NCBI GenBank assembly: GCA_026075535.2
Contig: AP026547.1
Coordinates: forward strand, 7,192,001-7,256,000
DNA from: Tricholoma matsutake
Lineage: Eukaryota > Basidiomycota > Agaricomycetes > Agaricales > Tricholomataceae
DNA length: 64,000 bases
Direction: 5' to 3'
The translations under genes and the position numbers were made by a program. Every line of letters starts with the position of its first letter. Position 1 is the first letter of the stretch. The notes under the pieces are model-generated. The model worked only from the letters and a program-made list of their open reading frames with translations, did not search any database and was not told the origin of the DNA. Below, one piece after another: positions 2,398 to 33,603 of this stretch.

Positions 2398-2600
2398 GAG
2401 GTCTTTGTCCTCCCCCACCTATTCCTGGAGGAATCCTGGAGGATTATTGGGAACCAATGTTCCAGCCATTTGTCACTCAAGTAATTCCTGGAATTCCCCA
2501 GGACTCTACCAGGACTCTACCAGGACTCTACCAGGACTCTACCAGGAATCCACTGGGACTCCACTGGGATTTAACCAGGAGTCCTTACTATTAAAAAGGA
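2398..2600 (+). repeat. CE1 left subterminal repeats (CCAGGACTCTA units)
   Basis: At least four tandem copies of an 11-bp unit (AGGACTCTACC) lie at about 2505-2548, next to TCCTGGAGGAATCCTGG. The right subterminal region (4820-4890) holds the inverted counterparts. These are probably transposase binding sites, by analogy with hAT subterminal repeats. Confidence 0.65.
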
Positions 2601-2605
2601 AACCT

Positions 2606-2676
2606 TGGAGGATTGAACCCAGGACCCCGGGGTTAAATTAAACAGGTGCAATATACCATTATACCATAGTGTCCTT
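2606..2676 (-). repeat. tRNA-like cap, left side of CE1
   Basis: On the minus strand a box A-like TATGGTATAATGGTATATTG is followed by a box B-like GGGTTCAATCC about 45 nt later, the layout of an internal Pol III promoter. The cloverleaf is degenerate and no CCA end is visible, so this is a tRNA-derived (SINE-like) sequence and not a tRNA gene. Transcription from it would run outward to the element's left end. Confidence 0.6.
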
Positions 2677-2715
2677 CTAAAATGCCACATAAGTTGATCT
2701 AAGTACCACATCGAG

Positions 2716-2743
2716 TGGCTGTGTATGACAAAGCACACAGCCA
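2716..2743. repeat. GGCTGTG palindrome next to the cap
   Basis: Inverted repeat TGGCTGTG...CACAGCCA around a short spacer containing ATGACAAAG. It is repeated at 6446-6472 in CE2, and a relative with arms GGTGTGATGACA/TGTCATCACACC lies at 33023-33059 in CE4. It always sits between the less conserved tRNA-like cap and the GGGCCC hairpin. Confidence 0.7.
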
Positions 2744-2939
2744 CATCTGCCAGCTCATCAACCAACCACCACCACTCTCGACAATGCTGTGGCCACGGCC
2801 TCCTTCCCTTCCTTCTGCCACCTCCCCTCCATGAACACCCACCACCACCATGCTCCCATACCCCCTTGTCTAACCCCACCAACAGCTGCATTTGCACCAC
2901 CTCGGGCCCAAACGATGACAGATGTTGTTTTGGGCCCAG

Positions 2940-3005
2940 GTAATGTTTTTTATGTTCTTTTTTTCTTTTTCTTTCGACTAATTATTGTTTTGTTTCTTTC
3001 TTTAG
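2940..3005 (+). other. intron-like segment of CE1, copy 1
   Basis: Donor GTAATG at 2940 lies two bases after the 3' arm of the GGGCCCAAAC...GTTTTGGGCCC hairpin (2904-2937). A branch-like GACTAATTATTG, a T-rich tract and TTTAG follow, ending at 3005. The downstream sequence starts GTTCTAACTAGG, as after other copies. At 66 nt it fits basidiomycete intron size. Confidence 0.6.
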
Positions 3006-3082
3006 GTTCTAACTAGGTTATGACAATGAGATGGCACCACCAGCCCCACCCACTGAACGACACACCACCCACATCCAGCCCC

Positions 3083-3105
3083 ATGAGCAACTGCTCATGG
3101 GGTGG
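3083..3105. repeat. GAGCAACTGCTC palindromic module (CE1)
   Basis: CCCATGAGCAACTGCTCATGGGG is a near-perfect 22-24-nt inverted repeat, flanked by GGGTGGA. It is one of roughly 28 copies in the window; here the arms extend beyond the core by five pairs. Confidence 0.75.
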
Positions 3106-3192
3106 ATCGTGGGTGGAACAGCATGGATGAGGAGGAGGCAAGCCAAATGAAAAAGGCCCAGGAGATGTTGTCAACATCTCCTGGGCCACAGG

Positions 3193-3593
3193 TGTTAGGA
3201 AACCATCCCATTACCTAATAAACTTTCATTTTATTTTATTATGTCGAATTACGCTACATGACGCCAAATGATGCTACATTTTGATAGCATGAGAGTTTTA
3301 TTTTGCATGCATCAAAATGTACGCGCATGTATGAGTGCGTCGGTAACAACAATGTACAATATATGTAACATAGTATATAAACCCTAAATATATGCCTAGG
3401 GGACCCCAGTTGTGTTCTCTTAGGTATTCCACCTACGTTTTCGGTGTGAAAGGCCTATCTCAACAAACTTACCTATTAATAACCCCTCGCATCAAAACTA
3501 TCAATTCCCCCATCATGTGTGTGGATCCCACCCCCTTCTTGTAGAGAGAACCTGCACGGTCTTAGCTAGCAGATAGTGGGTGTCGCCCTAACA
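3193..3593 (+). mobile_element. solo LTR of the GyC family, TSD ACAGG
   Basis: A 401-bp LTR starting TGTTAGGAAACC and ending GCCCTAACA, flanked by the perfect 5-bp duplication ACAGG (3188-3192, 3594-3598). It matches the two LTRs of GyC at 51197-51598 and 52923-53324. No internal region remains, so this is a solo LTR left by LTR-LTR recombination. It entered CE1 between a GGCCC hairpin and its intron donor. Confidence 0.93.
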
Positions 3594-3597
3594 ACAG

Positions 3598-3645
3598 GTA
3601 AGTTTTTTCTTTTCTGGTTTTTTTAATTTTTAATAATTTTTTTAG
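3598..3645 (+). other. intron-like segment of CE1, copy 2
   Basis: Donor GTAAGT at 3598 and TTTTTTTAG ending at 3645 (48 nt). Without the LTR and one duplication copy, the donor sits a few bases after the hairpin GGCCCAGGAGATG...CATCTCCTGGGCC (3155-3187), the same spacing as in copy 1. No clear CTAAC branch site. Confidence 0.5.
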
Positions 3646-4261
3646 ATTGATAATGGAGATGACAGGACCAGCACAACCAGCACCTGCCACCACCATGTGA
3701 GCCCCTGCTCGCAAGGTGAATTGTGGGCACTCAATGACAAACCAGACGGCCACCACCACCACAGCACCCCAATCTGCTGCTGCGAGCAACTGCTTGTGGG
3801 GTGGAATCAGGGAACCATTGGGATGGGGATGATGTAGAGACAAGGATGGGGATGATGTAGAGACAAGGATGGGGATGGGGATGGGATGTGGATGAGGACA
3901 AGGACAAGGATTGGGACAGGACAACAGGGATGACCCACCACCACCGCCACTGCGAGTGGTTTCACAGGGTGGAGGGAGGTCCGAGGATGGAGATGACGAC
4001 AGTGGCAAAAGACAGTGAGGGTGAGGAGAACAAGACCACCAGCACCACCACCGGCACCACCACAGCACCCCAATGGTACCACGGGGACAGGGACAACAAG
4101 AGGAGGGCACAGACACCATGGATGGCCCACGAACACGACCCAAAGCACCAGGACAACAATGAAGGGGACAACCACAAGGACAGCGAGGACAGCAGCCAGG
4201 GATGACAGGAGCGGGGCCCATGCATGCCCAGGATAACATGCAACGATGCACCCCCACCAGG

Positions 4262-4515
4262 CTGCCCCCGCATTTTGCATGGGGCAGTTTTTTCAATTTT
4301 TATTTATGGTAATGCCTCCCCCCTCGCCTGCATTTTACATGGGTGAGGGGTTTTTCTCTCTTTTTCTTTATAATTGTAGTTCTCCCCTTGCGTTCGATGC
4401 GGGGGGAGATTAGTTTTATATCTAAATATTGGTAGGACTTCCCCTTGCACTTTGTGTGAGGATGGTCTTTTTTTTATGTAATTAATTGTGTATCCCTCGC
4501 ATCTAACACAAGGGA
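4262..4515. repeat. GC-clamped hairpin block of CE1
   Basis: Five successive short inverted repeats of the form CCCC-TCGC...GCG-AGGGG with loops around ATTTT/ATCTA, separated by AT-rich spacers (for example CCCCTTGCG-TTCGA-TGCGGGGG). Equivalent blocks occur in CE2 (10286-10372), CE3 (6950-7240), CE4 (31830-32030) and, modified, in CL3 (35200-35600), always beside the better conserved cap. They could be RNA structures or protein sites. Confidence 0.65.
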
Positions 4516-4620
4516 TGTAGTTAATAAATTTTGTTTGATCTTAATTGTGAGTTTCGAGAGAGAAATACCTGAGTTTGAGTTTGAGTGCATAAATACACTT
4601 TATATTAGTAACTAATAATT

Positions 4621-4708
4621 CTCCTGTGGCTCAACTGGTTGAGCACACTTGGTTTGTCATATGATCCATGATCATGAGGTCTGGAGTTCATCCCTGCTCT
4701 GAACACAT
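4621..4708 (+). repeat. tRNA-like cap, right side of CE1
   Basis: CTCCTGTGGCTCAACTGGTTGAGCA (box A with a perfect GCTC/GAGC D-stem) precedes GGAGTTCATCCCTGC (box B-like) after about 45 nt. This cap type is shared with the hairpin-side caps of CE3 (6786-6875) and CE4 (31690-31776). It points outward to the right end. Confidence 0.65.
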
Positions 4709-5115
4709 CTGTTTTGTAGGCACTTTGTGAAATTCATGAAGTCCAAAGCACTTGAAACTCATAAGATATCAAATTGACTTTCCATTATGGTTTGACTTTA
4801 GGGTACTGCAATGTACTGGGAATCCTGGTGAGTCCTGGAGGAATCCTGGTCTTTCTGGTAGGACTACCAGGATTCCTCCAGGACTCTGTGGGGGAGTCAT
4901 AAAGTTCTGGACTCCAGCACCAAAACCAACACCAATGGTGCCAACAATGACAATGACAGGGCCAACACTGAGCACAATGCAATGGCACCAACATGGGCCA
5001 ATGCCAATGCTGAGCACCCACATCCAGCCTCATGAGCCACTGCTTGCAAGGGAGATTGTGAGGTGTTTTCTTTTGTTTCTTTTTTTGTTTTCTTTCTCGT
5101 TTCTTTTTCATTTAG

Positions 5116-5474: not shown

Positions 5475-6068
5475 TTGCACTCATGGCTAGAGGTTGACCC
5501 TCAAAGAAGTCTTGGCCCACACCCAACATCGCTGGTCTCAGAAATCAATCCAGACAGTCCTCTGCATTCTCTGAGTCAACCCACTCCACCCAGATCCAGA
5601 GCCCCAAGCCCCGATGGTAATGAATCTGATTTGGAGGAGGACAACAAGGATCTTGATTTGTTGATCCATTTTGATTCTCTGAAGACAAACCTTGCACATG
5701 CGGAGGTTTGCCAAGACAAGGGAGAAGATGATGATAATGAAGAGTTGGAGGAATGGGAGGGATTTGGCAAGGAAGATCTTGCTGAGGCGATGATAGGCAT
5801 GCTCGAGGTTGAAGAACCATCTGATCTGGATTGGCTGCCTGAGAGACTGAAGAACAAGAGAAACAAGAGAAAGCAAGAGAAGAAGGGCATGGACTCACAA
5901 TTGTTTTCACTTATCTTGCTACTGATAATGCAACCAGAAAGACCCAAGACATATCAGAAAGGTCCAGATGTCATGGCTAAATCAGAGCGGACCCAGTGGT
6001 GGCATGCAAGAGCTTTCCGAGGCCAGAGACAGCTGACAGGGTTTGGGTTCAAGGCCCCTTCATATTGA
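5475..6068 (+). pseudogene. uncharacterised transposon-associated ORF, 3'-truncated
   Basis: An open frame of 197 codons with an acidic segment (SDLEEDNKDLD, DDDNEELEEWEG) and a basic C-terminal part (KNKRNKRKQEKK, then KGPDVMAKSERTQ and LTGFGF). The combination of acidic N-region and basic SERTQ segment resembles the N-terminal part of Agaricomycete DNA-transposon proteins, but I cannot name the family. The frame stops only because CE2 starts at 6067. The true start and whether an intron splits it are unclear. No catalytic motif is visible. Confidence 0.45.
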
Positions 6069-6322
6069 GGTCTTTACACTCCCCCCCCCAATCTGAGCAG
6101 ACTCCGCTCAGACACTCGGACAGTCCTAGGACTGTTGCTTGGACTTTGCTCAGACATTTTTTGGCTAAGACTCCTGCCAAACCAGGATGTACAGTCTGAG
6201 CTCTGTCCTAAGACTGTCTGAGCATCCGAGCGGAGTCTGATTGGACACATACTCGTACAGTCCTAGGACTGTCCGAGTCAGAGTGTTTGTTGTTGTTATT
6301 ATCAATTAAATAAAATATGTTA

Positions 6323-6404
6323 CACCACAAAGAGTTGAACACCCGTCCTAATGACAAGGTTACATAATCAGTAGATGACAATAACCATTGCACCAAACAG
6401 GCTT
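6323..6404 (-). repeat. tRNA-like cap, left side of CE2
   Basis: Minus strand: TTTGGTGCAATGGTTATTG (box A-like), then GTGTTCAACTC (box B-like) about 48 nt on. It belongs to the same positional class as the caps at 2606 and 33104, next to the GGCTGTG palindrome. Confidence 0.55.
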
Positions 6405-6445
6405 GAAAGGTAGGTAGAAATCTCACAGCCACATACCATTGCTGG

Positions 6446-6472
6446 TGGCTGTGTATGACAAAGCACACAGCT
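6446..6472. repeat. GGCTGTG palindrome of CE2
   Basis: Same sequence as at 2716-2743 except for one arm change (ACAGCTGC). It lies 40-odd bases after the left cap. Confidence 0.65.
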
Positions 6473-6785
6473 GCATCATCAACAACGCTGGCACATCACC
6501 TCTACCACCACCACAGTCAATGGTGCCACCTCCTCCCTACCTCCTACCCCAATAACCAACAATGGGAATGAGCCCAAACAATGGTATTGTCATTTGGCAG
6601 TAATTTACACTCCTCTACCTAACCTATTCCAATTGGACTCACCGGAGTCCAGTGGATTCCAGTGGATTCCGGTTATTCCGACCAGATTCCGGTTACTCCA
6701 GATGCTCAACTCAGAGTATATAACCCTAATGGATAGTCAAATTTCAAGTCTTAAGTTGTCAAAGTGCCTACAAAATATATTCATG

Positions 6786-6875
6786 CAGAGTAAGAATTGA
6801 ACTCAAGACATCTTGATTAGAGTGATCACATGACAAACCAAACATGTGTGCTTAACCAGTTGAGCCACAGGAGAA
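6786..6875 (-). repeat. tRNA-like cap, left side of CE3
   Basis: Minus strand CTCCTGTGGCTCAACTGGTT, then TTGAGTTCAATTCTTAC; clearly homologous to the caps at 4621 (CE1) and 31690 (CE4). Points outward to the left. Confidence 0.65.
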
Positions 6876-6949
6876 TTATTAGTTAGTAATATAATGTTTA
6901 TTCATGACACTCTAATTTTTTTCAAAGTAGTTAAGATCAATTTTTTTTA

Positions 6950-7240
6950 ATTAACCACATCCCTCACATTGAATGCGAGGGAGTGGGCATGATTGTGATT
7001 ATATACATAAACAAAAAATCCCCCCTCTCACAAGATGCGAGAGGGAGTTTTATTTATATACATAAAAAGCTAACCCCTCGCGCCGAACATGAGGGGGAGG
7101 TAAAAACATGATGAAAAAAATCCCTCCCCCACACAAAACGGGGGAGGGGGGGCACAATAATAATAAATAATTAAAAGTACAAAAAAAATCCCTCCCCACA
7201 TGAAGTGCAGGGGAGGGGGAGGGGACGCAACCCGCTGTTG
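6950..7240. repeat. GC-clamped hairpin block of CE3
   Basis: Inverted repeats such as CCCTCGC-ATTGA-ATGCGAGGG and CCCCTCTC...GAGAGGG, plus CCCCTCGCGCCGA-ACATGAGGGGG, spaced by AT-rich linkers including TTATATACATAAA. Same position relative to the cap as in CE1. Confidence 0.6.
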
Positions 7241-7261
7241 TCTGTCCTTCCACCAATGATC

Positions 7262-7455
7262 CACCCCACGAGCAGTTGCTCGTGAGGCTGGGGGTAGGTG
7301 GCTTGTCGTCATTGTCGTTCCACCCACGATCCACCCCACGAGCAGTTGCTCATGAGGCTGGGGGCGGGTGGTGTGTCATCGTTGTCTCCTGTCCCTGCGC
7401 CTGGGCATTGTTCCACCCATGTTCCACCCCACAAGCAGTTGCTCGTGAGGCTGGA
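7262..7455. repeat. three GAGCAGTTGCTC palindromic modules (CE3)
   Basis: Copies at about 7262, 7332 and 7424: CCACCCCACGAGCAGTTGCTC followed by GTGAGGCTGG and a GGTGGGTGG tail, at 70-95 bp spacing. Reverse orientation relative to the CE1 and CE2 modules, as expected from the reversed element. Confidence 0.75.
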
Positions 7456-8008
7456 GGTGGGTGGCTTGTCGTTGTTCGTCACCATTTCTGTCTTTTTTTT
7501 TTGGGGGGGGGGGGGGTTTGGGCATGTCAGTGCGACATGGTGCGTGTATGGGGGTTGGTGGGTGCTTACTACACAGGTATCCCCCTTCTGGGGTCTCCTG
7601 GCATCCCTCTGCACCCACCAAGCCCGTGTTGATAGCCTCACATCCCATTTGAATGGGGAGGAGGGGATCGGGTGGGTGTGGGCGTGGGTTGTGCATTTTT
7701 CCGTTGCACGTTTTCCATTGCAGCAGGTCATCCCCAGTAGTATATAGCCTAAAAAGCAATAAATTAAATTAGTTGATTGATAAAAAGAAAAAGAAAAAAG
7801 AAAAAAACTTATCTATGGCCCAAACAACAATTGCTGTCATTTGGGCCCGTGTTCCGTCCAGTCGGCTCATTTGAAGGTGGTGGTGATGGTGGCAGTGGGC
7901 ATGGGAATGGTGGTGGCGGGTGCACATGCAGTGGTGGTGGTAGAGTGGAGAGGAGGAGGAGGCGGCGTTGACAACAGTGGTGGTGGTTGTGAGCTAGCAG
8001 TCACATGT

Positions 8009-8410
8009 TGTTAGGGTGACACCCACTATCTGCTAGCTAAGACCATGCAGGTTCTCTCTACAAGAAGGGGGCGGGATCCGCGCTCATGATGGGGGAATTG
8101 ATGGTTTTGATGCGAGGGGTTATTAATAGGTGAGTTTGTTGAGATAGGCCTTTCACACCGAAAACGTAGGTGGAATACCTAAGAGAACACAACTGGGGTC
8201 CCCTAGGCATATATTTAGGGTTTATATACTATGTTACATATATTGTACATTGTTGTTACCGATGCATTCACACATGCACGTACATATTGATGCGTGCGAA
8301 ATAAAATTCTCATGCTATCAAAGTGTAGTGTAATTTGGCGTCATGTAGCGTAATTCGACATAATAAAATAAAAATGAAATTTTATTAGGTAATGGGGTGG
8401 TTTCCTAACA
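8009..8410 (-). mobile_element. solo LTR of the GyC family in CE3
   Basis: A 402-bp LTR in reverse orientation (TGTTAGGGTGAC...GGTTTCCTAACA as read on the plus strand), flanked by CATGT (8004-8008) and CGTGT (8411-8415). These form a 5-bp duplication with one transition consistent with CpG decay. No internal sequence remains. Confidence 0.9.
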
Positions 8411-8516
8411 CGTGTCACGTGTCATGCAATATGCATGTGTGCATATTCCGTTAATGGCTGTAACTATGCACCTTGGTTGGGTAATAAAAGTATTAGATGT
8501 ATGTAGATGAATAATG

Positions 8517-8589
8517 ACCTGGTAGCTCAGTGGTTAAGCGTGCTGTTATGTGTGCAGACCTGAGGTTGAGTGTTCAATTCTTGTTGCAT
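8517..8589 (+). repeat. tRNA-like cap, right side of CE3
   Basis: CTGGTAGCTCAGTGGTTAAGCG is an excellent tRNA box A/D-arm, followed by GAGTGTTCAATTCTTG (box B-like). It is the most tRNA-like cap in the window, but acceptor stem pairing is poor and it lies in a transposon, so I do not call a tRNA gene. Confidence 0.6.
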
Positions 8590-8868
8590 GTTGAAATTTT
8601 ATTTGGGAAAGCACATGCATTCCGGTTATTCCGGTTATGCTAGTGCCATGCATCCGGTTGATCCAACTGTTCCAGGTAAAAATGAGTCCGGGTAGATTCT
8701 GGGGATTCCAGAGGTAAAATTGACCCCCCAGTCCGACCGGAATGTGAGAAAAATATATGTAAATGGAATTCCCCAGAATTCCGGAAATTCTGATTGGAAT
8801 GGGCATTCCGACTGGAATCCGACCGGAATAGGTGGAGGAGTGTAGTGTACTCTCATTTGGGCTCACTT

Positions 8869-8932
8869 GTAAGTGTTTTTTTACATGTTTTTTGTTGTTT
8901 TGTTTAACTAACTGAATTTTCCTTAATGATAG
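8869..8932 (+). other. intron-like segment of CE2, copy 1
   Basis: Donor GTAAGTG at 8869, branch-like TTAACTAACTG, acceptor AG at 8932. The upstream hairpin is the one split by CE3. Confidence 0.6.
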
Positions 8933-9199
8933 GTTTTATCTATGTTATCACAATGCTGCAGCCTCAAATCCATGACAACGGCCAACATAGCCACCACCCT
9001 AGGACCCAGAACCACCACTGCAAGCAACTGCTTGTGGGGTGGGAACTACAACTGCAAAACAGCAGGGTTAGCACAATGAGGCAACTGGAGATGACTGGGA
9101 GATGGAATGATGAGGGGATGAGCAGGAAACAATGAAAGGAAGGCAAAGCAAACAAAGAAAAGGCCCAAGAGACATCAAACGACATCTCATGGGCCATTG

Positions 9200-9253
9200 G
9201 TAAGTTTTTTTTTCTTGTCCTTTCCTTATTTTGTTACTAATGAACTTTTTTAG
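9200..9253 (+). other. intron-like segment of CE2, copy 2
   Basis: Donor GTAAGT at 9200, directly after the hairpin GGCCCAAGAGACATC...CATCTCATGGGCC (9162-9195). A TTACTAATG branch-like motif and TTTTTTAG end at 9253. Confidence 0.55.
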
Positions 9254-9715
9254 GTATTATCTAGTACTGCTGATGACAACGAGCACTCAGAACCACTGCT
9301 GCGAGCAGCTGCTCGTGGGGTGGGAATGGGTGCAACTTCAAAATGACAAGAACAGCAACCCTGACAGAACAACAAGACAATGAGACACAGCCCCCACCCC
9401 CAGCCCTCATGCCCACCACGCAGGATGCAACACCCACCTCCAGCCTCATGAGCAACTGCTCCTGGGGTGGATGGTGGGTGGAATGATGACAATGGCAGGG
9501 AACGATGACAGCACCTGCCCCAGCCCTATGAGCCACTGCTCGTAGGGTGGATGACAGGTGGAATGACGACAATTAAGGGAGATGCCAACAACAGCCAGCA
9601 CCCCCCATAACTGCTGCAGGCAGCTGCTCGCAGGGTGGATGGGGGGTGCAAGAGTGCAGGTACCAACAGGGAGACAAAAAAGGCCCAAGAGGTGTCAACG
9701 TCTCTTTGGTCCTAG

Positions 9716-9770
9716 GTAAGTTTTTTTTTTTTTCTCATTTCATTTTTTGATGCTAACTAACTTTTTTTAG
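9716..9770 (+). other. intron-like segment of CE2, copy 3
   Basis: Donor GTAAGT at 9716 after a hairpin (GGCCCAAGAGGTG...CTCTTTGGTCC, 9682-9713). Branch-like GCTAACTAAC, acceptor TTTTTTTAG at 9770. Confidence 0.6.
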
Positions 9771-10285
9771 GTACAAACTACTACTGGCAATGACGACGAT
9801 GGGGGGACACCACCACCACCACTGCTGCAAGCCCCTGCTTGCAGGGTGGAAGGTGAGGGTGAAGAGACGAGGGGGAAGGGAGACAACAATGAGAGTGTAG
9901 ACACCCACAACAACACCCGCCCCATGCCTATGAGCATCTGCTTGTGGGGTGGTTCAGGGGGGAGAAGAATGGGGACAGGAGAGCGAGACAGCCAGGGGAC
10001 AAACCAGGGAGAGATGAACAACAACACAGGGAAGAAGACCAATGACAACGACAACAAAGGAAGGTGACACCACCTGCCCCCAGCCTGACGAGCGACTGCT
10101 CATGGGGGTGGTCATGGTGGAACGATGACGACAATGGCACAGCACCCACCCTTCACTGCTGTGAGCAATTGCTCACAGGGTGGACTGGGTGCTAATAGCC
10201 ACAGGGCAGAAGGAGATGCTGCAGACCACTGCCATGAGCAACTGCTCGTCGTGGGTGTTTTTAATTTATTTTTATAATTGATAGT

Positions 10286-10372
10286 TACGGCCCCCTCCCC
10301 TCGAGCTTGTGAGGGGAGGGCCTAGTATTCTACTTATTAATTAGGTTGTACCCCTCGCACAGATGCGAGGGG
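10286..10372. repeat. GC-clamped hairpins of CE2
   Basis: CCCCTCCCCTCGAGCTTGTGAGGGGAGGG and CCCTCGCACAGATGCGAGGG, immediately inside the right cap. Confidence 0.65.
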
Positions 10373-10445
10373 GTCAATCTATTCATGATATATATAAAAT
10401 GAGATTTCAGTAATAAATAGATATAATGTATGTAAATTTAAATGA

Positions 10446-10536
10446 CTACTTGGCTTAAGTGGTAGAGTGTGCATGTTTGGTCATCATGTGATTGCTAGTC
10501 CAGAAGTCTGTTGGTTCAATTCTTGCTGTGCACACA
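10446..10536 (+). repeat. tRNA-like cap, right side of CE2
   Basis: CTACTTGGCTTAAGTGGTAGAG (box A-like) and TGTTGGTTCAATTCTTGC (box B with the GGTTCAA core), about 60 nt apart. Points to the right end of CE2, which is separated from it by GyA. Confidence 0.6.
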
Positions 10537-10566
10537 TCATTTCATGAGACTTATATATAAGAATTT

Positions 10567-11149
10567 TGTCAAGACCGATTCTTCTGACTGGACTTCTGAT
10601 CATTTTCTGCCCCCATTCATGGCCGCCTTACATCACAGCCCACCTCCTATCAGCAGCACTGCCTAGAGGTGAAATTCTCTCATTTCCAATTAAGTGAAAC
10701 AGTTTCAGGAATTGCCTCGGAAGCCAGTTTTCATATTAGCCACAGCCTCGGAAACTCCGACCTTAGTATTTAAGCTAGCTACTTCCGTTTTGTATCGCCA
10801 GTTTGTAAATCAACCAAGTCTCCCACTTAATCCTATCCTCTTTAAAACTCCAATTATGTTCTTAAGTCATTTTCAAACTCTTACTCATCCTCTCCGGAAA
10901 TTCTCCGGACCTCTGGTCACCTTCCTTACCCTTGCCTTGAAATTAGGACACTTGATGAGGAGAAGGGCACAACTTCTTATAAGTTGAAGCCAAGTCCTTT
11001 CTGCTCCCCCACTTGGTACGACACATCAAGTAAACCCTGCCCCAGATTTCTGTAGGATTCCCTGTCTTACTCCATCCAACCACTACAACTTCTATTGTCC
11101 AGGTATGACCGGAATTCCGACGACTTCCCCTCAAGATCAGTACTTAACA
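10567..11149 (+). repeat. 5' LTR of GyA
   Basis: 583 bp, TG...CA ends; about 95% or more identical to the 3' LTR by eye, with most differences being C/T or G/A transitions, and an 11-bp difference near the start. Confidence 0.93.
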
Positions 11150-11198
11150 GTATTTACAAACTCTCACTTCTCTCGTCAAAACCATCCCATCTTTCCTT

Positions 11199-12605
11199 AT
11201 GACTCCTACTGAGTCAAAAACCCAACGAACTACAAGAAACTCCCACCATGCTGGCACGTTACCAGGATTATCAGCAATACGCCAATCCATACTTCCTTCC
11301 CCTAGACACACTTCGACTTTTGGTGCATCCACCAGACCATCCAACATCTTCAGGCAAATCAGTTCTGGAGCACCCTCCATCAGTGCTAACGTCATGTCTC
11401 AACCTCCGGAGACCCCTCGGAATACAACTCCACTTGAGTACATAGAGGATGTTGGGCAACCTAACCCCTTTGATGAGGAAGGTCCAGGTAAAGAGGATGG
11501 ACTTCCCGGTGGACCTGATGACCCTAGCTGTCCTGACGGCCCCGGGGATGACCCCAATCCTGATGACCCTGATGACCCTCTACCTCCCATTGGTGGAAAT
11601 CCTGATCCAGGAGATAGGTTTCTCGATGCTCTCTTCGAGCTCTCAGATAGTCTCCGAACCCTCTGGCAGAACCAAGCACCCAAGACCGAGAAGATCAAAG
11701 TTCATGATCCTGATACTTTCGACAGGGCTAATCCCCGGAAACTTCGGGACTTCCTAGTCTCGTGCAACCTTCACTTCCATGATCGTCCTCAGGTATTCGC
11801 CTCCGATGAAAAGAAAATTCTATTCATCCTTTCCTACCTCAAAGGGTCAGCTCTTAGCTGGTTTGAACCTGGACTCAATGACCCAACAAATTCTGCCCAT
11901 TGGATGTGGAACTACGAGGTATTCCTTAGTGAGTTGGAAAGCAATTTTGGTCCTCATGACCCTGTCGGGGACGCGGAAAAGGCTCTTTCAGAACTCACAA
12001 TGAAGAAAGGTGGAAGAATAGTGAAGTATAATGTGGACTTCTGGGAACTGGCTTCCCGGGTCAACTGGAATGAGGCCGCTCTTCGCAACCGGTATTTCCA
12101 TGGTCTTCCGCTCCGTCTCCGCATAGAAGTCTTATGGGGGGGACAACCCGAAACTCTAGTATCCCTATGTCTTAAAGCCCAGGATGCTGACAACATCTAT
12201 TGGATGCAGGAAGAAGAAACCCGCTTAGAAACAAAGACCCCCAGAAATTCCGCACACACCGGAAAGAAGGAATCTAAAGGTTCTTCTAGCTCCAATTCCA
12301 ACACTCAGTCCAAACCCCAGCCCTTGTCCAGCACCAACCGCACAAACCAATCCTTGTCCGGCAGCTCCTCTGGGTCAAGGAACAACTTCCAGAAGGACAA
12401 GCCAAAAAACTCTATTTCTGACAAGTTGGGGAAAGACGGTAAACTAACTGGAGATGAATGTGAATGCCGCATGAAGGAAGGACTTTGCCTCTACTGCAGT
12501 GAGAAAGGACATGGAGCCAGGAATTGTCCGAAGTCCAAAGTGGCCAAAGCCCGTGCTGCAGCAGTCACTGAGTCCAAGCCGGACTCTGTGGACCCAAAAA
12601 AATAG
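11199..12605 (+). CDS. gag: GyA Gag polyprotein
   Basis: An intact 468-codon frame. Residues 1-130 are Pro/Ser/Asp-rich (a PDDPNPDDPDDP stretch). Residues about 165-340 match the retrotransposon Gag capsid domain (FIGL-type LKGSALSWFEPGL, then DAEKALSELTMKKGGRIVKYNVDFWELASRVNWNEAAL). A Ser-rich linker follows, then one zinc knuckle CLYCSEKGHGARNC (C-x2-C-x4-H-x4-C) near residue 430. It forms the particle that packages element RNA. The first Met (50 nt after the LTR) is taken because no other upstream start exists. Pol follows in a different frame, so it must be made by frameshifting or reinitiation. Confidence 0.9.
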   Translation: MTPTESKTQRTTRNSHHAGTLPGLSAIRQSILPSPRHTSTFGASTRPSNIFRQISSGAPSISANVMSQPPETPRNTTPLEYIEDVGQPNPFDEEGPGKEDGLPGGPDDPSCPDGPGDDPNPDDPDDPLPPIGGNPDPGDRFLDALFELSDSLRTLWQNQAPKTEKIKVHDPDTFDRANPRKLRDFLVSCNLHFHDRPQVFASDEKKILFILSYLKGSALSWFEPGLNDPTNSAHWMWNYEVFLSELESNFGPHDPVGDAEKALSELTMKKGGRIVKYNVDFWELASRVNWNEAALRNRYFHGLPLRLRIEVLWGGQPETLVSLCLKAQDADNIYWMQEEETRLETKTPRNSAHTGKKESKGSSSSNSNTQSKPQPLSSTNRTNQSLSGSSSGSRNNFQKDKPKNSISDKLGKDGKLTGDECECRMKEGLCLYCSEKGHGARNCPKSKVAKARAAAVTESKPDSVDPKK

Positions 12606-14715
12606 TTTGCAACCCTCGGGAACATGCCATTGGGGCTGAGGGTTGCATTGACCTTTCCCAACTGGCTGCTTACGTCTGTCTCAATGCGTCTGCTCTTTCT
12701 GATCCTGAATCCCTTACCATCCTGTTATCCCTTTCCAAACAATCCCTAAAAATCCAAACTCTTATCGACTCTGGTTCCTCACATTGTTTCCTCGATTCAT
12801 CATTTGTGCAGGACAACCAACTTAGTACCAAACCCATTCCTCCAATCGGACTTTTCGACTATTTGATGGAACTTGTAACTCCACCATAACTCAAGTCGTG
12901 GAACTCCCAGTCACTTTTCCATCTGGTGAAGTGTTCAATCTGACATTTTATGTAACCTCGCTGGACTCTTCCTGTTCTGCAGTACTTGGTCATAACTGGC
13001 TGAAGCAATACAATCCATTGATTGACTGGTCTTCAGGCCAAATAAATTTCTGTTCTGCAGTTCAAAGAGGTCCTGCCCCCTCGACGTCCTCCCACTCTCC
13101 TATCTTGTGTGAGTCACCTTCAACTCTGAACCTTCCAGTGGAAACCCACGAAAACCCCATAATCACTAAACCCTCAAAACTTGTACCACATGAGATCTCC
13201 TTCATCAATGCTGCCACTTACATGCATGCAAGCAAACTTCCTGGGGCTGTTGCCTTTCAGATGACATTCTCCCTCGAAGGACTGGCGGCTAAATCCTCAG
13301 CAGTGTCCAGAAATCCCCTGGACCTTTCTGATGTTCCGGAAGAATATCACGAATTTGCAGATGTTTTCAATAAACAAAAAGCCGACACCCTTCCTCCACA
13401 CCGTCCCTATGATCTCAAGATAGAGACGGAGGATAATGCTTCCCCACCTCTAGGTCACATGTACTCCCTCTCTCCCTCTGAGCTCGAGGCCCTCCGAATA
13501 TTCATTGAAGAAAATGTTCATTCAGGCTTCATCCGCCCCTCCAAATCCCCTCATGGTGCTCCTATACTCTTTGTCAAGAAAAAGGATGGGAGTCTCTGAC
13601 TTTGTGTTGACTACTGGGGACTCAATCGCATCTCAAAAAAGGACCGCTACCCACTTCCTCTAATCTCAGACCTCCTGGATTCTCTGGGAAAGGCACGCGT
13701 GTTCACCAAAATTGACCTCCGGCATGCTTATCACTTAGTCCGCATTGCTGAGGGAGATGAATGGAAGACCACTTTCCGCACGCGCTATGGTTCTTTCGAG
13801 TGGCTGGTAGTTCCTTTCGGACTCACCAATGCACCTGCTGCCTTCGGGCGGCCCTAGTGTTGCCACTGGCTCAGCCGAGGTTTTTCAATAAAATGGCTAT
13901 AGCATGCCAGGTAAATTTCTTAAATTCACCAAGATATTTGAGCATGTGGATGGGCCCATAAGCCGAGGGGTTGTCTGCCAAAATTAGTTGAACCAATCAA
14001 TTGTCCCTGAGTTATTTAATAAACAAAATTCGGCTTGATGGCTCGGCTTGAAATCAAAGCTGAGTGAATAAGTCAGGAACAGGGGATCCAGTCAGATAAT
14101 GTTGGCAGAAGACCCCTCGGCTTATGGGCTCGTCCATATGCTCAAATGTCCTAGTGAATTTAGGAAATTTATCTGGTATGCTATAGCCATTTTATTGAAA
14201 AACCTTGGCTGAGCCAGTGGCAACACTATGCAGCCTTCCAGTGCCTCATGCACGACATCTTCAGTGACCTATTAGATGTCAGTGTCATTGTCTATCTCGA
14301 TGATATCCTAATCTACTCCAATGACATGAGTCAACACAAGGCTCACATCAAGGAAGTCCTCCAGAGACTCCGGAAGAATGGCCTCTACGCTGCTCTGCAG
14401 AAATGCGAGTTCCATAAAGACAGCATGGAATACTTGGGGTTCATCCTCTCTCCAGATGGGCTCCGGATGTCCAAAGATAAAGTCAAAACCATCCTCGACT
14501 GGCCTGAACCTCGAAAGGTTAAGGATATCCAATCCTTCCTGGGATTCTGCAACTTCTACCGACGGTTCATCCACGGATATTCTGACATCATCATTCCACT
14601 CACCAGACTCACCCGGAAACATATGCCTTGGGACTTTGGCAAGAAATGTCAAGAAGCCTTCAACAAACTAAAAGAAGAATTCACTCATGCCCCAATACTC
14701 ACTCAATGGCTCCCA
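12606..14715 (+). pseudogene. pol: GyA Pol (protease and reverse transcriptase), broken
   Basis: Protease signature LIDSGSSH is at about 12765, followed by a frame change near 12850 and the FYVTSLDSSCSAVLGHNWL block. The RT begins at about 13340 (FADVFNKQKADTLPPHRPYDLKI). Its first part ends at a TGA (13597) exactly where the family has Arg (KKDGS[stop]LCVDY). RT resumes with [32 protein letters not shown], is cut at NAPAAF by the foldback element, and continues with VYLDDILIYS and the connection domain SFLGFCNFYRRF. The sequence ends at LTQW, where RNase H and integrase should follow. It is non-functional through at least four lesions. Confidence 0.88.
13855..14228. mobile_element. foldback/MITE-like element with about 130-bp inverted repeats
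   Basis: Inverted repeats begin TAGTGTTGCCACTGG and cover about 130 bp on each side (about 90% identical), leaving roughly 110 bp in the middle (GGCTTG...AGCTGAG). The GyA RT reading frame resumes across it. Flanks GCTGCCTTC (13837-13845) and GCAGCCTTC (14230-14238) look like a 9-bp duplication with one mismatch. Eight extra bases (GGGCGGCC...) precede the left repeat. A 9-bp duplication would suit a Mutator-like origin, but this is tentative. No coding capacity. Confidence 0.85.
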
Positions 14716-14719
14716 GAGT

Positions 14720-15394: not shown

Positions 15395-15447
15395 TTTGGA
15401 TTCAAACCTTCACGTGCCTCATAGGCTTGGCACTAAGGGGGAAATAC

Positions 15448-19335: not shown

Positions 19336-19394
19336 CAAATGCTGCCAACAAAACACATTGGGCACAAATGATGACAGATGTTGTTTGTGCCCAG

Positions 19395-21990: not shown

Positions 21991-21997
21991 GGGAGGG

Positions 21998-22249: not shown

Positions 22250-22256
22250 AGGAATG

Positions 22257-28953: not shown

Positions 28954-31379
28954 TTATTGGCACCCTCTGTTGGGAGCCCAACATACAACCAGGACCTTCC
29001 TGCCAATACCATAAGTGCCTGCTGGCTGCTGGACAGTTGTGACATGAGTGATAATATGGACAGGCTCAATAATACTAAGGTTGTTAGAGGGGAGTGCATC
29101 AACAATTCGTACCATAAATCCAGGGTGGTGTATGAATGGTGCCTGCCTCTCCTCTTGTGTAGATAGTGATTGATGTAAGTGGACTCTTATAAAGGTGTGC
29201 ATTATTCCCTCCAGCGGAAGTCTCCAAATGTTTTGAATGAATCCTGTATCATGAGCCTGTGTCAATGGATTGTAGAACTTTATAGCACTGTTTCCTTTAT
29301 GTGACTTTTCACAACTGAATGTGCACTCATCATGGTGCACCTGCAAAAGATGCTGGGCTTGTGGAGGGAGAATAATGGCATTTGGTGGATGGGGAAGATC
29401 AGAGTAAGCTTGGTATGGTCTTCCTGTCTGGTGAAGATAATTAAGCAGATTGTTATAATCTACTTCAAGAAGGCAAGGTGCCTTTGCTAGAATATCTGCC
29501 ACTTCTGTAGGCTGGAGAGGTACTGGATGGTCATCCATAGCCATGTCTCCTGGCTCAAGAATATCACATAATTCTTTTAAATGATCTTCATTGTGCAGTA
29601 AAGCATCTACACGTGCTTGACGACTCATCTGACAAAGCATTGTAAGATCTAAATCCCCTGATCTTGGTATTAGCTATCAATTTTTGAGCAAAATAATTGA
29701 AACACATATGGAGATGATAATTGGTGTTCATTTTTTGCAACTTTCCATTCATTCGTTCACCTGGAAACTCACTAAAAGAAGCCAAAGGACCCCAGTATTT
29801 GAGAAGAGCACCATTATGCATTGCATAATGATGGTTTGGCTTGGATGGACGATGTGGAAAAAGCTGTTGAATAGCAGTTCGATATTGAATATAATGCTGA
29901 GTATAGGCATCAGCATCAGCATTGAGGTTTGATATGCAGCTACAATATTTGTTGCTGCAACATGATAGAAGCAGTAGAAGTGCTGGTGGTGGAAATTTGT
30001 GGCAGTAGTCATGTACCAGAATTCAGGAATAATGAGGGGAAAGATACATGTGAAGAGGGTGAGATATTCCTGAGCTTTGAGCTTGCCATGGCTTGGTTCA
30101 CCAAGATTGGTTGGTGGTCTTTGTATCCATGTTGGAAGAGTGATATCATGAATGCAATTTCTTATTGCTTGTAGCTCAGTTTCTGTGAAGCTAAAAGGCA
30201 AAGGGTCAACAGGAATATAGTTATCATCATCATCATTGTCATCATCATCATCATCATAATTGAAGTCATATGCATAGGGATTTGTGTGGCTCTGTGTGGC
30301 TGTAGGTGTTGATGATGAGGATGAATCTGATAATTCAGAAGAAGATGGTGAGGGAGACATAGGTGGTGGTGTATGGTGCATTGCCATTGCAGCCTCAAGA
30401 TTATGTTTAGCTGCTTCTTGAAAAAGGTCATCCAATTCTTCAGCAGAATCTGATACATCTGCCTCACTCCACTGCTCATCCTTTTCCACCTCTTTAACTT
30501 TTTGGCTTTCATCCTCATCCCGTCCAACTCCCCAGAGTGCACGAAGATGATGCTGTAAAACACCCTCAAGCCAGTTATGCATAAAACCTAGTACAACATG
30601 TTTGACTGGATCCCAATATGGAAGATTATGCAGTGGAGTCCATCGCACACCAGTTGTCTTTTGCAGAGCATTTTGACCAGCTTTGGTTGTCTGATGCAAC
30701 CATGCCTCTGCCTGTGCTCGCACCTGTGCACCATTACAGAGTTCCCAAGATTGAATATTGAGATCCTCTAGCTGATCACTGGTGCAGAGGCAGAAAGAAC
30801 AGAACATTGTAGCACCATGTCCCAAAAAACCAGTGGCCTTGCAACCTCCCTCAAGATCAGCAATCACAGGTGCCATTTTTGCTTTCACAGAGATGCCATC
30901 AGGATGTCTAGATGTTGGCAGATTTTGGCCTGGTGCAGCACCATACTTGGCAACAGATTTAATAACAGGTTCAAGAAGATGAGAGATGGTTGTGGGGTCA
31001 GTTTGATGTTTGGAAGCTTGACATTGAGTCCAGATGATGAAAGAGCAACCTCGACAATAGAGAGAGTCACAGAAATAATAAGTTGAAGTCCTTGTAGAAT
31101 TTTGTTGGTGATAGAACAACTCACACCAGCTCTATTGTGGAGCCAGATGACAAGGAGGCAGATCATCTTTGTGATAAGTACTGTAGAAAAGTTGATATCT
31201 GCATAATTACCATTAGTCTTGATCTAACAATAACAATGTAGCACTTACCTGTGGGAGAATTAGAAGCTCTAGAACATTTTGGTGATGGGCTTGGGGATGA
31301 TGATTGCCACTTCCCCTTTGCCAGTTGTGAAACAGGCCGTTTATCCTGTTTCTCATGCTTCAAACATAAACTTTGCACT

Positions 31380-31560
31380 CCCCCCCATATTCCTATCGGA
31401 GTCCTAGGAGTCCGAGTTTTCTGATAAGAGTCCAATCGGAATCCGATAGGAGTCCTACTAGTCCGACACTAGTCCTAGGAGTCCAATCGGAATCCGATAG
31501 GAGTCCTACTAGTCCGACACTAGTCCTAGGAGTCCGATTGGAATGTATCTTGATGACCAT
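31380..31560 (+). repeat. CE4 left subterminal repeats (53-bp tandem unit)
   Basis: AGTCCAATCGGAATCCGATAG-GAGTCCTACTAGTCCGACACTAGTCCTAGG occurs twice in tandem (about 31429-31529) with a partial third. Each contains the palindromes ACTAGT and CTAGTCCTAG. Inverted relatives (CGATCGGAATC, GATCGGACTC) fill 33220-33480. Confidence 0.75.
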
Positions 31561-31689
31561 GTACTTTTATTTCCAAGAAATTCCTAGTAAATTCCGAGTA
31601 AAGTCCTATGCAATTCCAACAGGTAGTAGTCGGAACACCACACCATTTCGGAAGACTTAACTTGATGAAAGTGCTTACAAAATAAATGG

Positions 31690-31776
31690 GCAGAGCAGGA
31701 ATTGAACTCTAGACCTTGGGATATAAGTGACATGACTACCAAACAAGTGCTCAACCAGTTAAGCCACAGGAGCATT
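31690..31776 (-). repeat. tRNA-like cap, left side of CE4
   Basis: Minus strand CTCCTGTGGCTTAACTGGTT, then TAGAGTTCAATTCCTGC; same type as 4621 and 6786. Confidence 0.65.
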
Positions 31777-32164
31777 AATAAATATGTAATATAAAGTCCA
31801 TTTAAAGCACTTAGGATTAGTTCACTTATTTTTAACCTCTCTCACAAGAGCTCGAAAAAAAATTGTTGAGCCCTCACATCTTTGCAAGGGAGTAGATAAA
31901 TATAGATTTAAAAAAAAAACCCCACGCAAACGCGAGGGGGAGAATTAATTATACTATTTAATTATACTATTTTAAATTCTACAAAAAAAACCCACCCCCC
32001 CGCAAAATGGGGGGGAGGGGGTGGTGGTGCATCGTGTTGGCTGTCTCGTCAGCCCTGTCCCATTGTTTCCCCTCCCTCTCGTCTCCGTCATGTCTTGCCT
32101 CCCTCACCTTGCCTCCCCCGTGGCTTCCCTCCCCTCCCTTGTCTCCCCTCCCTCGTCGTTCCAC

Positions 32165-32530
32165 CCACCGTCCACCCCATGAGCAGTTGCTCGCGAGGCT
32201 GGTGGTGGGTGGTGCATCGTATGTTGGTGGCAGTGTTTGTCCATTGTCTTTCCTTCTGGTCGTTGTTTCCCTTTCCTCTTGTCGTTTTGCCACCCTTGTC
32301 GTTCATCCCCCTCATCGTCTGCACCCATGAACCACCCTACGGGCAGCTGCTTGTAGGCGTGTCGTTTGGTGCTGTCGTCATCCCTCCACGCTGTTCCCAT
32401 GTTCTCGCACCCCATATACACCCCACGAGCAGTCGCTCACGGCAGTGATGGGGGGTGCTGGATGTCATTGGTGTCATGGGGGGTCCATGCACTCATGATC
32501 CACCCTACGAGCAGCAGCTCATAGGCGTGG
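32165..32530. repeat. four palindromic modules of CE4
   Basis: CCACCCCATGAGCAGTTGCTC (32165), CCTACGGGCAGCTGCTTGTAGG (about 32335), CCCCACGAGCAGTCGCTC (about 32420), CCTACGAGCAGCAGCTCATAGG (about 32505). The second and fourth have arms CCTAC/GTAGG and CCTA/TAGG, showing compensatory changes. Confidence 0.7.
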
Positions 32531-32759
32531 GGTGGGTGCATTGTTGGTTTGTCAGTGACGTGGCTCGAGGGGAGGGGTTGGGTGGTGCTTACCGAGCGGG
32601 TATTCCCCTTCTGGGGTCTCCTGGTGTTGCTCCCCATGCTCCTGACCATGATTGATACCCTCACATCCCGTTTTGACGGGGAGGAAGGGGGTTGCCAGGG
32701 GCGTCGTTGGGTGTGGGTTTGGCTTGCGTCAGTCCATTGTTACTCATGTAGATTAGAAC

Positions 32760-32824
32760 CTAGAAACAAAAAAAATGAATTAGTTAGTTTACAAAAGTAA
32801 AAAACGAATGAAAAAAAAACTTAC
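32760..32824 (-). other. intron-like segment of CE4
   Basis: On the minus strand: hairpin GCCCAAATGATG...CATCGTTTGGGCC (32856-32828), donor GTAAGT at 32824, branch-like CTAACTAATTC, acceptor TTTCTAG ending at 32760, then GTTCTAATC. Confidence 0.6.
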
Positions 32825-33103
32825 TATGGCCCAAACGATGATTGCATCATTTGGGCATCATTGGCCATCGAAACCAGTCGTTTCCAGTCTTGGGGGCTCG
32901 TCTAGAGATGGGGGTGAAGTGGGAGTGGTGGGAGTTGCTGGGTTGAGGTGGTTGAGGTGGGGGGGATGGAGGTGGCATGCTTGTCGTCGTTGGTGGTGGT
33001 GGGAGGAGTTGATGAGCTGGCAGGTGTGATGACACGGCTATGTGCTTTGTCATCACACCCGCAGGAATGGTATGTAGTGTAGTATGATCACTTACCTGTA
33101 ATG

Positions 33104-33180
33104 ATTGTTTAGCCTAATGGTATTGTTGTCGGTTTATGCTTACATAATCTTCTGTAGTCAAGTGTTCAATTCTCATCTGT
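33104..33180 (+). repeat. tRNA-like cap, right side of CE4
   Basis: TTTAGCCTAATGGTATTGTTG (box A-like) and AAGTGTTCAATTCTCA (box B-like). Same positional class as the caps at 2606 and 6323. Confidence 0.55.
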
Positions 33181-33603
33181 GTGTTTAATTTTTCATACTA
33201 TATTACTAAGCAAGGCTGCTTTCATTCCTATCGGAATCCTATGTTGTCTGATGTCTTAGCATAACTTCGGACTAGTCCTATGTGATTTCTATGATTGGAA
33301 ATTCCTAGGAAATTCCGATAGTCTGATCGGACTCTGATCAGACTCCATCGGACTGGACTAGGACTAAATGTGCCATTTCATGTCAATTTGGCTGGTGAAA
33401 ATGACATCGGAATATGGTTGGATTCCAATCGGAGTCCGATCGGAATCATCAGAATCATCAGATTCCTATAGGAATATGGGGGGGAGTGTAAAGACCTCCT
33501 TCAAACGGGTAGAACCATCAACATACTGTCCTGGCTGTTCAACACCATTGATGAAGATGATTTTTGTGCTACAAATTGTGCAGTTACATATGACTGGAGG
33601 CAT

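What the first reader, a model, noticed from the sequence alone, without database searches (positions are those of the whole stretch)
2398..33498. A transposon family capped by outward-facing tRNA-like sequences (CE1-CE4)
Four copies share one architecture: hAT-like end, palindromic subterminal repeats, tRNA-like sequence pointing outward, GGCTGTG palindrome (decayed or changed in some), GGGCCC hairpin plus intron-like unit, palindromic modules, GC-clamped hairpins, a second tRNA-like sequence pointing outward, subterminal repeats, end. Three copies have perfect 8-bp target duplications (GACTCCAG, TCATTTGG, CTTCAAAC). Stripped of nested insertions they are 2106, 2447, 1848 and 2133 bp. hAT-like mobility combined with paired SINE-like tRNA heads is not an arrangement I know. 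Two different tRNA-derived types occupy fixed positions, so the caps are part of the element and not chance SINE hits.
Basis: partly seen in the sequence, partly recalled or inferred. Interest (0 to 1): 0.88.

Follow-up and report, generated by a model that had tools for sequence, protein, structure and literature searches.

The report
Jumping DNA with tRNA-like gene caps
In the matsutake mushroom, a large family of jumping DNA pieces carries a small tRNA-gene-like unit just inside each end, both pointing outwards, an arrangement we did not find described and whose purpose can now be tested.

Summary
The window is Tricholoma matsutake chromosome 10 (assembly TMA_r1.1). CE1-CE4 belong to a high-copy lineage of TIR transposons without transposase-sized ORFs: CAGTANTTTACACTCC ends occur 569 times, GAGGTCTTTACACTCC ends 1011 times, reversed controls 0. 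Ends coincide with insertion boundaries: perfect 8-bp target duplications in 13 of 20 loci fetched by place, paralogous empty sites for 8 of 18 elements tried, and for CE4 in 40 of 40 scored places. In 22 tallied elements an outward cap II lies on the GAGGT-type side in 22, an outward cap I on the CAGTA-type side in 21. Of 55 cap sites found by profile, 44 have an end within 600 nt, always of the predicted type. Two copies fetched by ends alone fit; one, a 1.07-kb deletion derivative, kept both caps. The caps give no Rfam tRNA match but look like compact pol III genes: A box, B box, TTTT 11-17 nt later in 42 of 43. Cap I is conserved across subfamilies more than its surroundings. 'hAT-like' is unproven: no matching transposase was found. 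Best reading: non-autonomous cut-and-paste elements with built-in divergent pol III units, probably cis-acting promoters or chromatin barriers (inferred).

The parts
2398..4909 (.). CE1, whole element (GAGGT-type end left, CAGTA-type end right, both decayed), includes a nested solo-LTR-like insert at about 3193-3593
   Evidence: TSD GACTCCAG 2390-2397 and 4910-4917 (by eye); caps by HMM; insert limits
2585..2680 (-). CE1 cap II (A box TATGGTATAATGG, B box GGTTCAATCCT, TTTTT 11 nt later)
2715..2744 (.). CE1 hairpin GTGGCTGTGT..ACACAGCCAC (TTTGTCAT on the cap II strand)
   Evidence: 64 nt upstream of the cap II anchor
2904..3005 (+). CE1 GGGCCC palindrome followed by an intron-like unit (GT...TTTAG)
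   Evidence: sequence printed; similar units
4608..4715 (+). CE1 cap I (A box TGGCTCAACTGG, TTTT 16 nt after the B box)
6067..20216 (.). CE3, outer element interrupted by CE2, an LTR-type retroelement (about 10570-16020) and a TAGTG-ended element (16177-20150); no TSD
6308..6416 (-). CE3 cap II
6445..6474 (.). CE3 GTGGCTGTGT.. hairpin upstream of cap II
   Evidence: sequence, by eye
6598..8852 (.). CE2, whole element (CAGTA end left, GAGTAC end right), includes a nested solo-LTR-like insert at about 8009-8414
   Evidence: TSD TCATTTGG 8/8; flanks joined without it match palindrome-intron modules in L001, L010, L025, L026, L036, L038
6771..6885 (-). CE2 cap I
8504..8609 (+). CE2 cap II (a different type, GTAGCTCAGTGGTTAAGC)
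10433..10541 (+).
31366..33498 (.). CE4, whole element, 2133 bp (ATAAACTTTGCACTCC left, GAGGTCTTTACACTCC right)
   Evidence: TSD CTTCAAAC 8/8; empty site in 40 of 40 scored places of 140 candidates; left edge shared by 29 of 29 other cap-selected copies
31679..31784 (-). CE4 cap I
32760..32857 (-). CE4 GGCCCAAA palindrome and intron-like unit (limits by eye)
   Evidence: sequence; the regex missed it; related modules
33020..33062 (.). CE4 hairpin with TTTGTCAT upstream of cap II
33089..33200 (+). CE4 cap II

Best explanation
CE1-CE4 are copies of a lineage of non-autonomous TIR DNA transposons in Tricholoma matsutake. Ends are CAGTA[A/C]TTTACACTCC (or close variants) on one side and GAGGTCTTTACACTCC (or GAGTAC...) on the other, followed by GGA/TCC-rich subterminal repeats. 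A transposase supplied in trans (not identified) cuts and pastes them, making an 8-bp target duplication. Each element carries, as a fixed part, two pol III gene-like units pointing outwards: cap I on the CAGTA side and cap II on the GAGGT side. Shown: boundaries, TSDs, empty sites, polarity, position, A and B boxes, tRNA-like terminator spacing, conservation of cap I between subfamilies, retention in a 1.07-kb deletion derivative. Inferred: that TFIIIC and pol III really bind; that short RNAs of about 100 nt are made and end about 15 nt after the B box; and that the useful thing is the bound promoter itself (open, nucleosome-poor DNA next to the transposase binding region, or a barrier against spreading methylation).
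For: Ends: 569 and 1011 exact matches, reversed control 0 for both. Polarity: on C1:0-11.84 Mb, 11 facing CAGTA/GAGGT pairs within 4 kb against 0.72 expected from random placement, and 0 facing like pairs against 0.95. TSDs: 8/8 in elements of 13 of 20 loci fetched by place, plus L037, L058, CE2, CE4, CE1 by eye and L106, L107. Empty sites: 8 of 18 elements tried (L009, L010b, L012, L013, L020, L025, L028, CE2) have clear uninterrupted paralogues among the held loci; CE4 has 40 of 40 scored, of 140 candidates. Caps: cap II in 22 of 22 and cap I in 21 of 22 tallied elements; leaving out the four of the finding and the two loci chosen by cap I, 16 of 16 and 15 of 16. Profile hits: 23 of 28 cap I and 21 of 27 cap II sites have an end within 600 nt, all 44 of the predicted type. 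TTTT 11-17 nt after the B box in 20 of 21 cap I and 22 of 22 cap II; background 4-6% per window. Found by cap alone: 29 of 29 other CE4-type cap I loci stop at the element edge; 10 of 10 cap II hits on C1 below 11.84 Mb have an outward end motif at 203-398 nt, three of them in loci already held. Found by ends alone: 2 of 2 fetched have both caps in place. Cap I similarity exceeds shuffles (z above 4) in 21 of 21 pairs of seven representatives, flanking windows in 3-7 of 21. TTTGTCAT or a close variant lies 59-64 nt upstream of the cap II anchor in 17 of 21 elements. No tRNA model match in 8 loci.
Against: No expression, ChIP or methylation data. No transposase with these ends was found. L009 has no recognisable cap I; the four CE2-subfamily elements lack the TTTGTCAT motif; cap II is only weakly similar between subfamilies (8 of 21 pairs above z 4). 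Eleven of 55 profile sites have no end within 600 nt, and within 12 kb facing like pairs also occur (7 against 16 unlike). Scored against a strict consensus, single caps are often not significant (CE2 cap I p 0.17; CE1 cap I p 0.75 with the true cap not picked), and inward-strand controls reach 15-20 of 22 against 17-22 outward; the case rests on recurrence and terminator spacing. L018, L019b and L024 cap II also have TTTT directly after the B box, which could stop transcription early. Within the young CE4 subfamily cap II diverges like the body (0.7% at non-CpG columns in both), so single copies show no selection on caps. The folding test has no power: an intact-looking tRNA-Ile control scored z -0.56 like the caps. 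Most loci were chosen by end motif; the cap-based scans list only the 40 best hits each.
Confidence: 0.72

Rival explanations
1. The caps are old SINE insertions captured once by an ancestral element and carried since as passengers; position and polarity are inherited, without function.
For: Homology of cap I across subfamilies is what common descent would give; within the CE4 subfamily cap II diverges like the rest.
Against: Cap I stays similar between representatives whose adjoining windows mostly do not; dissimilar cap II types all keep A box, B box and TTTT at +11 to +15, which drift would tend to lose; the deletion derivative L106 kept both caps while losing most of the body (one element).
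Confidence: 0.25
2. The caps make functional short RNAs, for example a guide, a decoy or a primer, and the RNA is what is selected.
For: Complete pol III gene layout with terminators; many near-identical young copies; the folding test could not exclude structure, since its tRNA control also failed to stand out.
Against: No Rfam tRNA match in 8 loci at E up to 5; cap II sequences are weakly similar between subfamilies.
Confidence: 0.15
3. They are ordinary hAT MITEs; the tRNA-likeness is a chance match to short degenerate boxes.
For: 8-bp TSD and TIRs; single-cap scores are often modest and inward controls overlap them.
Against: Outward, end-specific recurrence in 21-22 of 22 elements and terminator spacing in 42 of 43 caps against a 4-6% background.
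Confidence: 0.03
4. They are non-autonomous partners of KDZ (Zisupton/Dileera) and not of hAT elements.
For: Zisupton and a Dileera family make 8-bp TSDs (PMC12730594, passages); KDZ is abundant here (831 candidates).
Against: Of 29 listed KDZ matches on C1 one has a facing exact CAGTA end within 8 kb, and that end belongs to a CE2-type element.
Confidence: 0.2

Closest known systems
hAT non-autonomous elements and MITEs
   Same: Short TIRs, 8-bp TSDs, subterminal repeats, no transposase-sized ORF, high copy number
   Different: Terminal bases CAGTA / GAGGT instead of the usual hAT form (recalled); 1.07 to about 3 kb; two outward pol III gene-like units at fixed places; no matching hAT transposase found
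tRNA-derived SINEs
   Same: A box and B box of a tRNA-like pol III promoter
   Different: TIRs, 8-bp TSDs around the whole element, two units facing outwards, TTTT terminator right behind the B box
Cassandra TRIM retrotransposons of plants (recalled)
   Same: A mobile element with a built-in pol III gene unit as a structural part
   Different: Cassandra carries 5S promoters in LTRs; this is a TIR DNA transposon with tRNA-type boxes
megB1, the dimeric Alu-like element of Agaricomycetes
   Same: Short, pol III-style repeat reported in matsutake relatives (PMC10627285, passages)
   Different: Described there as a dimeric Alu-like element, mainly in rRNA IGS1, one copy elsewhere in section Caligata; no sequence comparison was made here
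tDNA insulators (recalled)
   Same: Pol III genes at borders of a DNA domain
   Different: Those are host tRNA genes; barrier activity of the caps is only proposed

Membership tests
hAT superfamily | 8-bp target site duplication | tested here: met
hAT superfamily | short terminal inverted repeats beginning with a YARNG-like motif (recalled) | tested here: not met
   The inverted TTTACACTCC core is present, but outer bases are CAGTA, GAGGT, GAGTA or ATAAA/GTAAA; some hAT families deviate, so this lowers but does not exclude
hAT superfamily | transposase with hAT dimerisation domain bearing the same ends | tested here: inconclusive
   449 PF05699 candidates, 151 matches; 0 of 15 listed on C1 face an exact CAGTA end within 8 kb; the mapped family has TAGTGTTTAAAGG ends; seven further hAT loci show no pair of such ends. 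Variant ends would be missed
KDZ (Kyakuja-Dileera-Zisupton) | KDZ transposase within the same ends | tested here: inconclusive
   831 candidates, 165 matches; 0 of 29 listed on C1 after checking the single near case
MITE | non-autonomous, TIR plus TSD, high copy | tested here: met
   longest ATG ORF 69-225 aa in 21 of 22 sequences checked, L020 (296 aa) holds retroelement ORFs; Pfam was not run on all of them
MITE | small size (under about 0.8 kb, recalled) | tested here: not met
   1074 bp (L106) to 3297 bp (L015); 8192 bp for L020 with its nested insert
tRNA-derived SINE | pol III A and B boxes | tested here: met
tRNA-derived SINE | TSDs around the tRNA-headed unit itself | tested here: not met
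   TSDs flank the whole TIR element; a 3' tail was not searched for systematically
tRNA gene | cloverleaf recognised by the Rfam tRNA model or ARAGORN | tested here: not met
   0 in the window; no tRNA match at E up to 5 in 8 loci; the same model finds tRNA genes elsewhere in the genome
pol III transcription unit | T4 or longer terminator just after the B box | tested here: met
   42 of 43 caps
pol III transcription unit | transcription in vivo | not testable with these tools
   no expression data available

The most novel reading that the evidence does not exclude
A class of DNA transposon bracketed by pol III: two divergent pol III units next to the ends are cis-acting parts of the mobile element that recruit TFIIIC/TFIIIB to keep the transposase-binding ends open and unmethylated, so that selection on mobility keeps the promoters, replaces worn ones (several cap II types), and keeps them in deletion derivatives.
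Probability: 0.3. Interest if true: 0.82.

Novelty: new variant of a known kind. Interest (0 to 1): 0.62.

Why it matters
Pol III promoters are known as heads of retroposons and in a few LTR elements (recalled). A high-copy DNA transposon lineage with a matched, polar pair of them would tie pol III machinery to cut-and-paste transposition and offers a natural test of whether pol III units protect mobile DNA from silencing. It may also explain part of the 25.4% of this genome listed as unclassified repeats, where SINEs number only 13 (PMC10211490, passages); which class these elements fell into there was not checked.

Tried and rejected
Cloverleaf tRNA or known RNA family: no match. Structured cap RNA: ten caps fold like shuffles, but the tRNA-Ile control did too, so this test decides nothing; I raised the RNA rival from 0.12 to 0.15 on noticing that. 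Caps conserved within a subfamily by per-copy selection: not supported; the 99% identity of cap I hits against mostly 90-95% elsewhere goes with CpG decay outside the caps (CpG-capable columns diverge 21-34%; other columns 0.6-2.1% outside cap I and 0.16% in cap I, which was the query that selected the loci). Autonomous partner: looked for among hAT, KDZ and Plavaka matches, by end mapping of a hAT pair and in further hAT loci; not found. Two cap pairs 7-10 kb apart (L034, L043) looked like longer elements, but L034 carries a repeat also seen at window 723-980, and the insert of L043 matched none of the loci I printed. A KDZ match near a CAGTA end proved to lie next to a CE2-type element. Intron-like pattern by strand: 22 hits on the cap II to cap I strand against 20 on the other, no enrichment; only palindrome-linked units are persuasive, seen in 9 of 19 elements, all among the printed hits of that strand. 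Literature: search listings with abstracts only; none listed a DNA transposon with paired tRNA-like ends, in this open-licence library. Other species could not be searched (no relatives held). PMC6980582 has no occurrence of hAT, SINE, MITE, tRNA or DNA transposon in its main text (term count).
Full report
What the window is. The genome handle has 161,040,721 bases in 13 contigs and the window is C10:7,192,001-7,256,000. The total and the contig lengths (C10 10,915,969; others) equal those printed for the telomere-to-telomere assembly of Tricholoma matsutake (PMC10211490, passages). That paper lists 25.4% unclassified repeats and 13 SINE copies.

The element. CE2 and CE4 were recovered by a search for TTTACACTCC-type ends with 8-bp repeats outside them; CE1 fits by eye (GACTCCAG both sides); CE3 has both ends but no TSD. 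The same search over L009-L058 found 17 more elements with perfect TSDs, 15 of them in the 20 loci that I had fetched by place (13 of those loci gave one or more, seven none); most of L029-L058 do not reach the right end. Of the 30 loci selected by CE4 cap I one is CE4 itself; the other 29 are all homologous to CE4 up to 31364-31367, its left edge.

Ends define the insertion. With flanks joined and one TSD copy left out, 18 elements were compared with all held loci. L009, L010b, L012, L013, L020, L025, L028 and CE2 each have clear uninterrupted paralogous sites; L014 has a weak one (74% identity to L022); L015 matched only itself; the other eight gave none there. L010b sits inside another family member, whose relatives L011, L012, L014 and CE3 are empty at that place. 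For CE4 the joined flank matched 40 of 40 scored places (of 140 candidates) over its full 238 nt at 97-99%: CE4 lies in a multicopy sequence next to an ORF with a below-cut-off Plavaka match.

Copy number and polarity. Exact CAGTANTTTACACTCC occurs 569 times and GAGGTCTTTACACTCC 1011 times; the reversed patterns 0. On C1:0-11.84 Mb, facing pairs of unlike ends within 4 kb number 11 against 0.72 expected, facing like pairs 0 against 0.95; within 12 kb the counts are 16 and 7. The element thus has a CAGTA side and a GAGGT side.

Caps. I tallied 22 elements (19 plus CE3, L106, L107; the outer element L010a, which holds L010b, was left out, as were incomplete copies). Cap II is present on the GAGGT-type side in 22 of 22 and cap I on the CAGTA-type side in 21 of 22; L009 lacks cap I. 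Without CE1-CE4 and the two loci chosen by cap I (L037, L058) this is 16 of 16 and 15 of 16. Distances from the end are mostly 170-400 nt; L025 cap I is at 496, L025 cap II at 1034 and L015 cap I at about 1470. Over L001-L028, L059-L071 and the window the cap HMMs give 28 cap I and 27 cap II sites at E up to 1e-8; 23 and 21 have an end motif within 600 nt outward, and every one of these 44 ends is of the predicted type (TACTG-like variants for cap I; GACCTC, GACCTT, GTACTC or GTACTT for cap II). The 11 others include CE1, CE3 cap I, CE2 cap II (variant end) and interrupted or cut-off copies. No site lies in the 49 kb of loci fetched for hAT genes, or in the window outside CE1-CE4.

Tests free of one of the two marks. 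By cap alone: 10 of 10 cap II hits on C1 below 11.84 Mb have an outward end motif at 203-398 nt, nine GAGGT and one known only as TTTACACTCC; three of the ten lie in loci already held. By ends alone: six new facing pairs came out; I could fetch only the two shortest. Both have 8/8 TSDs and both caps in place. One, L106, is 1,074 bp; it lost most of the body but kept both caps, one palindrome-intron unit and both ends.

What the caps are. A and B boxes lie about 44-65 nt apart. Against a strict consensus single caps often do not beat shuffles, and inward-strand controls reach 15-20 of 22 against 17-22 outward. The strongest sign is the terminator: TTTT begins 11-17 nt after the B box in 20 of 21 cap I and 22 of 22 cap II; the background is 3.6-5.8% per window. 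The exception, CE3 cap I, has TTTC. L018, L019b and L024 have an extra TTTT directly behind the B box. A TATA-like word (from a word list chosen after looking) lies 26-28 nt upstream of cap I in 17 of 20 elements checked; the others (L013, L025, L107) have one-base variants there. TTTGTCAT or a close variant lies 59-64 nt upstream of the cap II anchor in 17 of 21; the four without it are the CE2 subfamily. There is no Rfam tRNA match at E up to 5 in eight loci, though the same model finds tRNA genes in the genome. Ten caps fold like shuffles, but so does a tRNA-Ile control (z -0.56), so folding decides nothing. What is demonstrably kept is a pol III gene layout.

Conservation. Among seven representatives (CE4 and L020, and CE1 and L020, share some sequence by BLAST) cap I is similar in 21 of 21 pairs (median z 13.3), three adjoining windows in 3, 5 and 7 of 21; cap II in 8 of 21 and its neighbours in 3 of 21. 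Cap I is therefore kept through subfamily turnover, while cap II has been replaced or has diverged while keeping boxes and terminator. Within the CE4 subfamily (31 loci) non-CpG columns diverge 0.6-2.1% outside cap I (0.16% in cap I, which was the selecting query) and CpG-capable columns 21-34%; cap II behaves like the body. The burst is young and the copies have lost CpGs, as expected of methylated DNA (inference).

Body. Units with GTAAGT, CTAAC and TTTAG follow GGGCCC-type palindromes in 9 of 19 elements by regex, on the strand from cap II to cap I; overall the regex shows no strand bias (22 against 20) and it missed CE4. By eye similar units sit in uncapped sequence of this window (near 1951-2030, 16620-16920 and 34790-34900). 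The longest ATG ORF is 69-225 aa in all sequences checked except L020, whose 296-aa ORF belongs to a nested retroelement by eye.

Transposase. hAT (449 candidates), KDZ (831) and Plavaka (786) are all abundant. A hAT pair, L059/L060, has TAGTGTTTAAAGG ends; one copy has TSD TATCAATC, the other a repeat with mismatches. None of 15 listed hAT and, after checking one, none of 29 listed KDZ matches on C1 lies within 8 kb inside an exact CAGTA end. The 8-bp TSD suits hAT and Zisupton/Dileera but not Plavaka (2-3 bp; PMC12730594, passages). The partner remains unknown.

Mechanism. Shown: non-autonomous TIR transposition with 8-bp TSD; paired, polar, outward pol III gene-like units as built-in parts. 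Inferred: transposition in trans; pol III occupancy; a cis role in keeping ends open or insulated. Passenger SINE capture is the main rival and is not excluded.

Noticed in passing
L103, L104, L105, L084 and other loci: The listed tRNA matches of the genome (53, of 11061 candidates with 63 scored) are dominated by near-identical tRNA-Ile(TAT)-like cloverleafs sharing an upstream stretch and a 3' end (..TTTAACA or ..CCTACA): a repeat that carries an intact-looking tRNA near its end, possibly a TRIM/LTR or SINE.
   Followed up: partly
window 16177-20150: An element with TAGTGTTTGAAAG ends, like the hAT family of L059/L060, is nested in CE3 (AGTCCAAG / AGTCCGAG flanks) and has palindrome-intron units but no cap HMM hit.
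   Followed up: partly
window 2904-3005, 32760-32857, 34790-34900; L012, L018, L023: GGGCCC palindromes directly before intron-like units with good splice and branch signals recur in element families with different ends (and by eye).
   Followed up: partly
window 34465-35775: A further repeat with GGGTATGGG-rich ends carrying the same palindrome modules; a similar end is nested in L025.
   Followed up: no
window 29749-31340 and 33507-33620: CE4 sits in a multicopy sequence (140 candidates, 40 scored at 97-99%) next to a 456-aa ORF with a weak, below-cut-off Plavaka match.
   Followed up: partly
CE4 subfamily, 31 loci: Divergence is about tenfold or more higher at CpG-capable columns than at other columns, suggesting strong methylation-linked decay.
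   Followed up: yes
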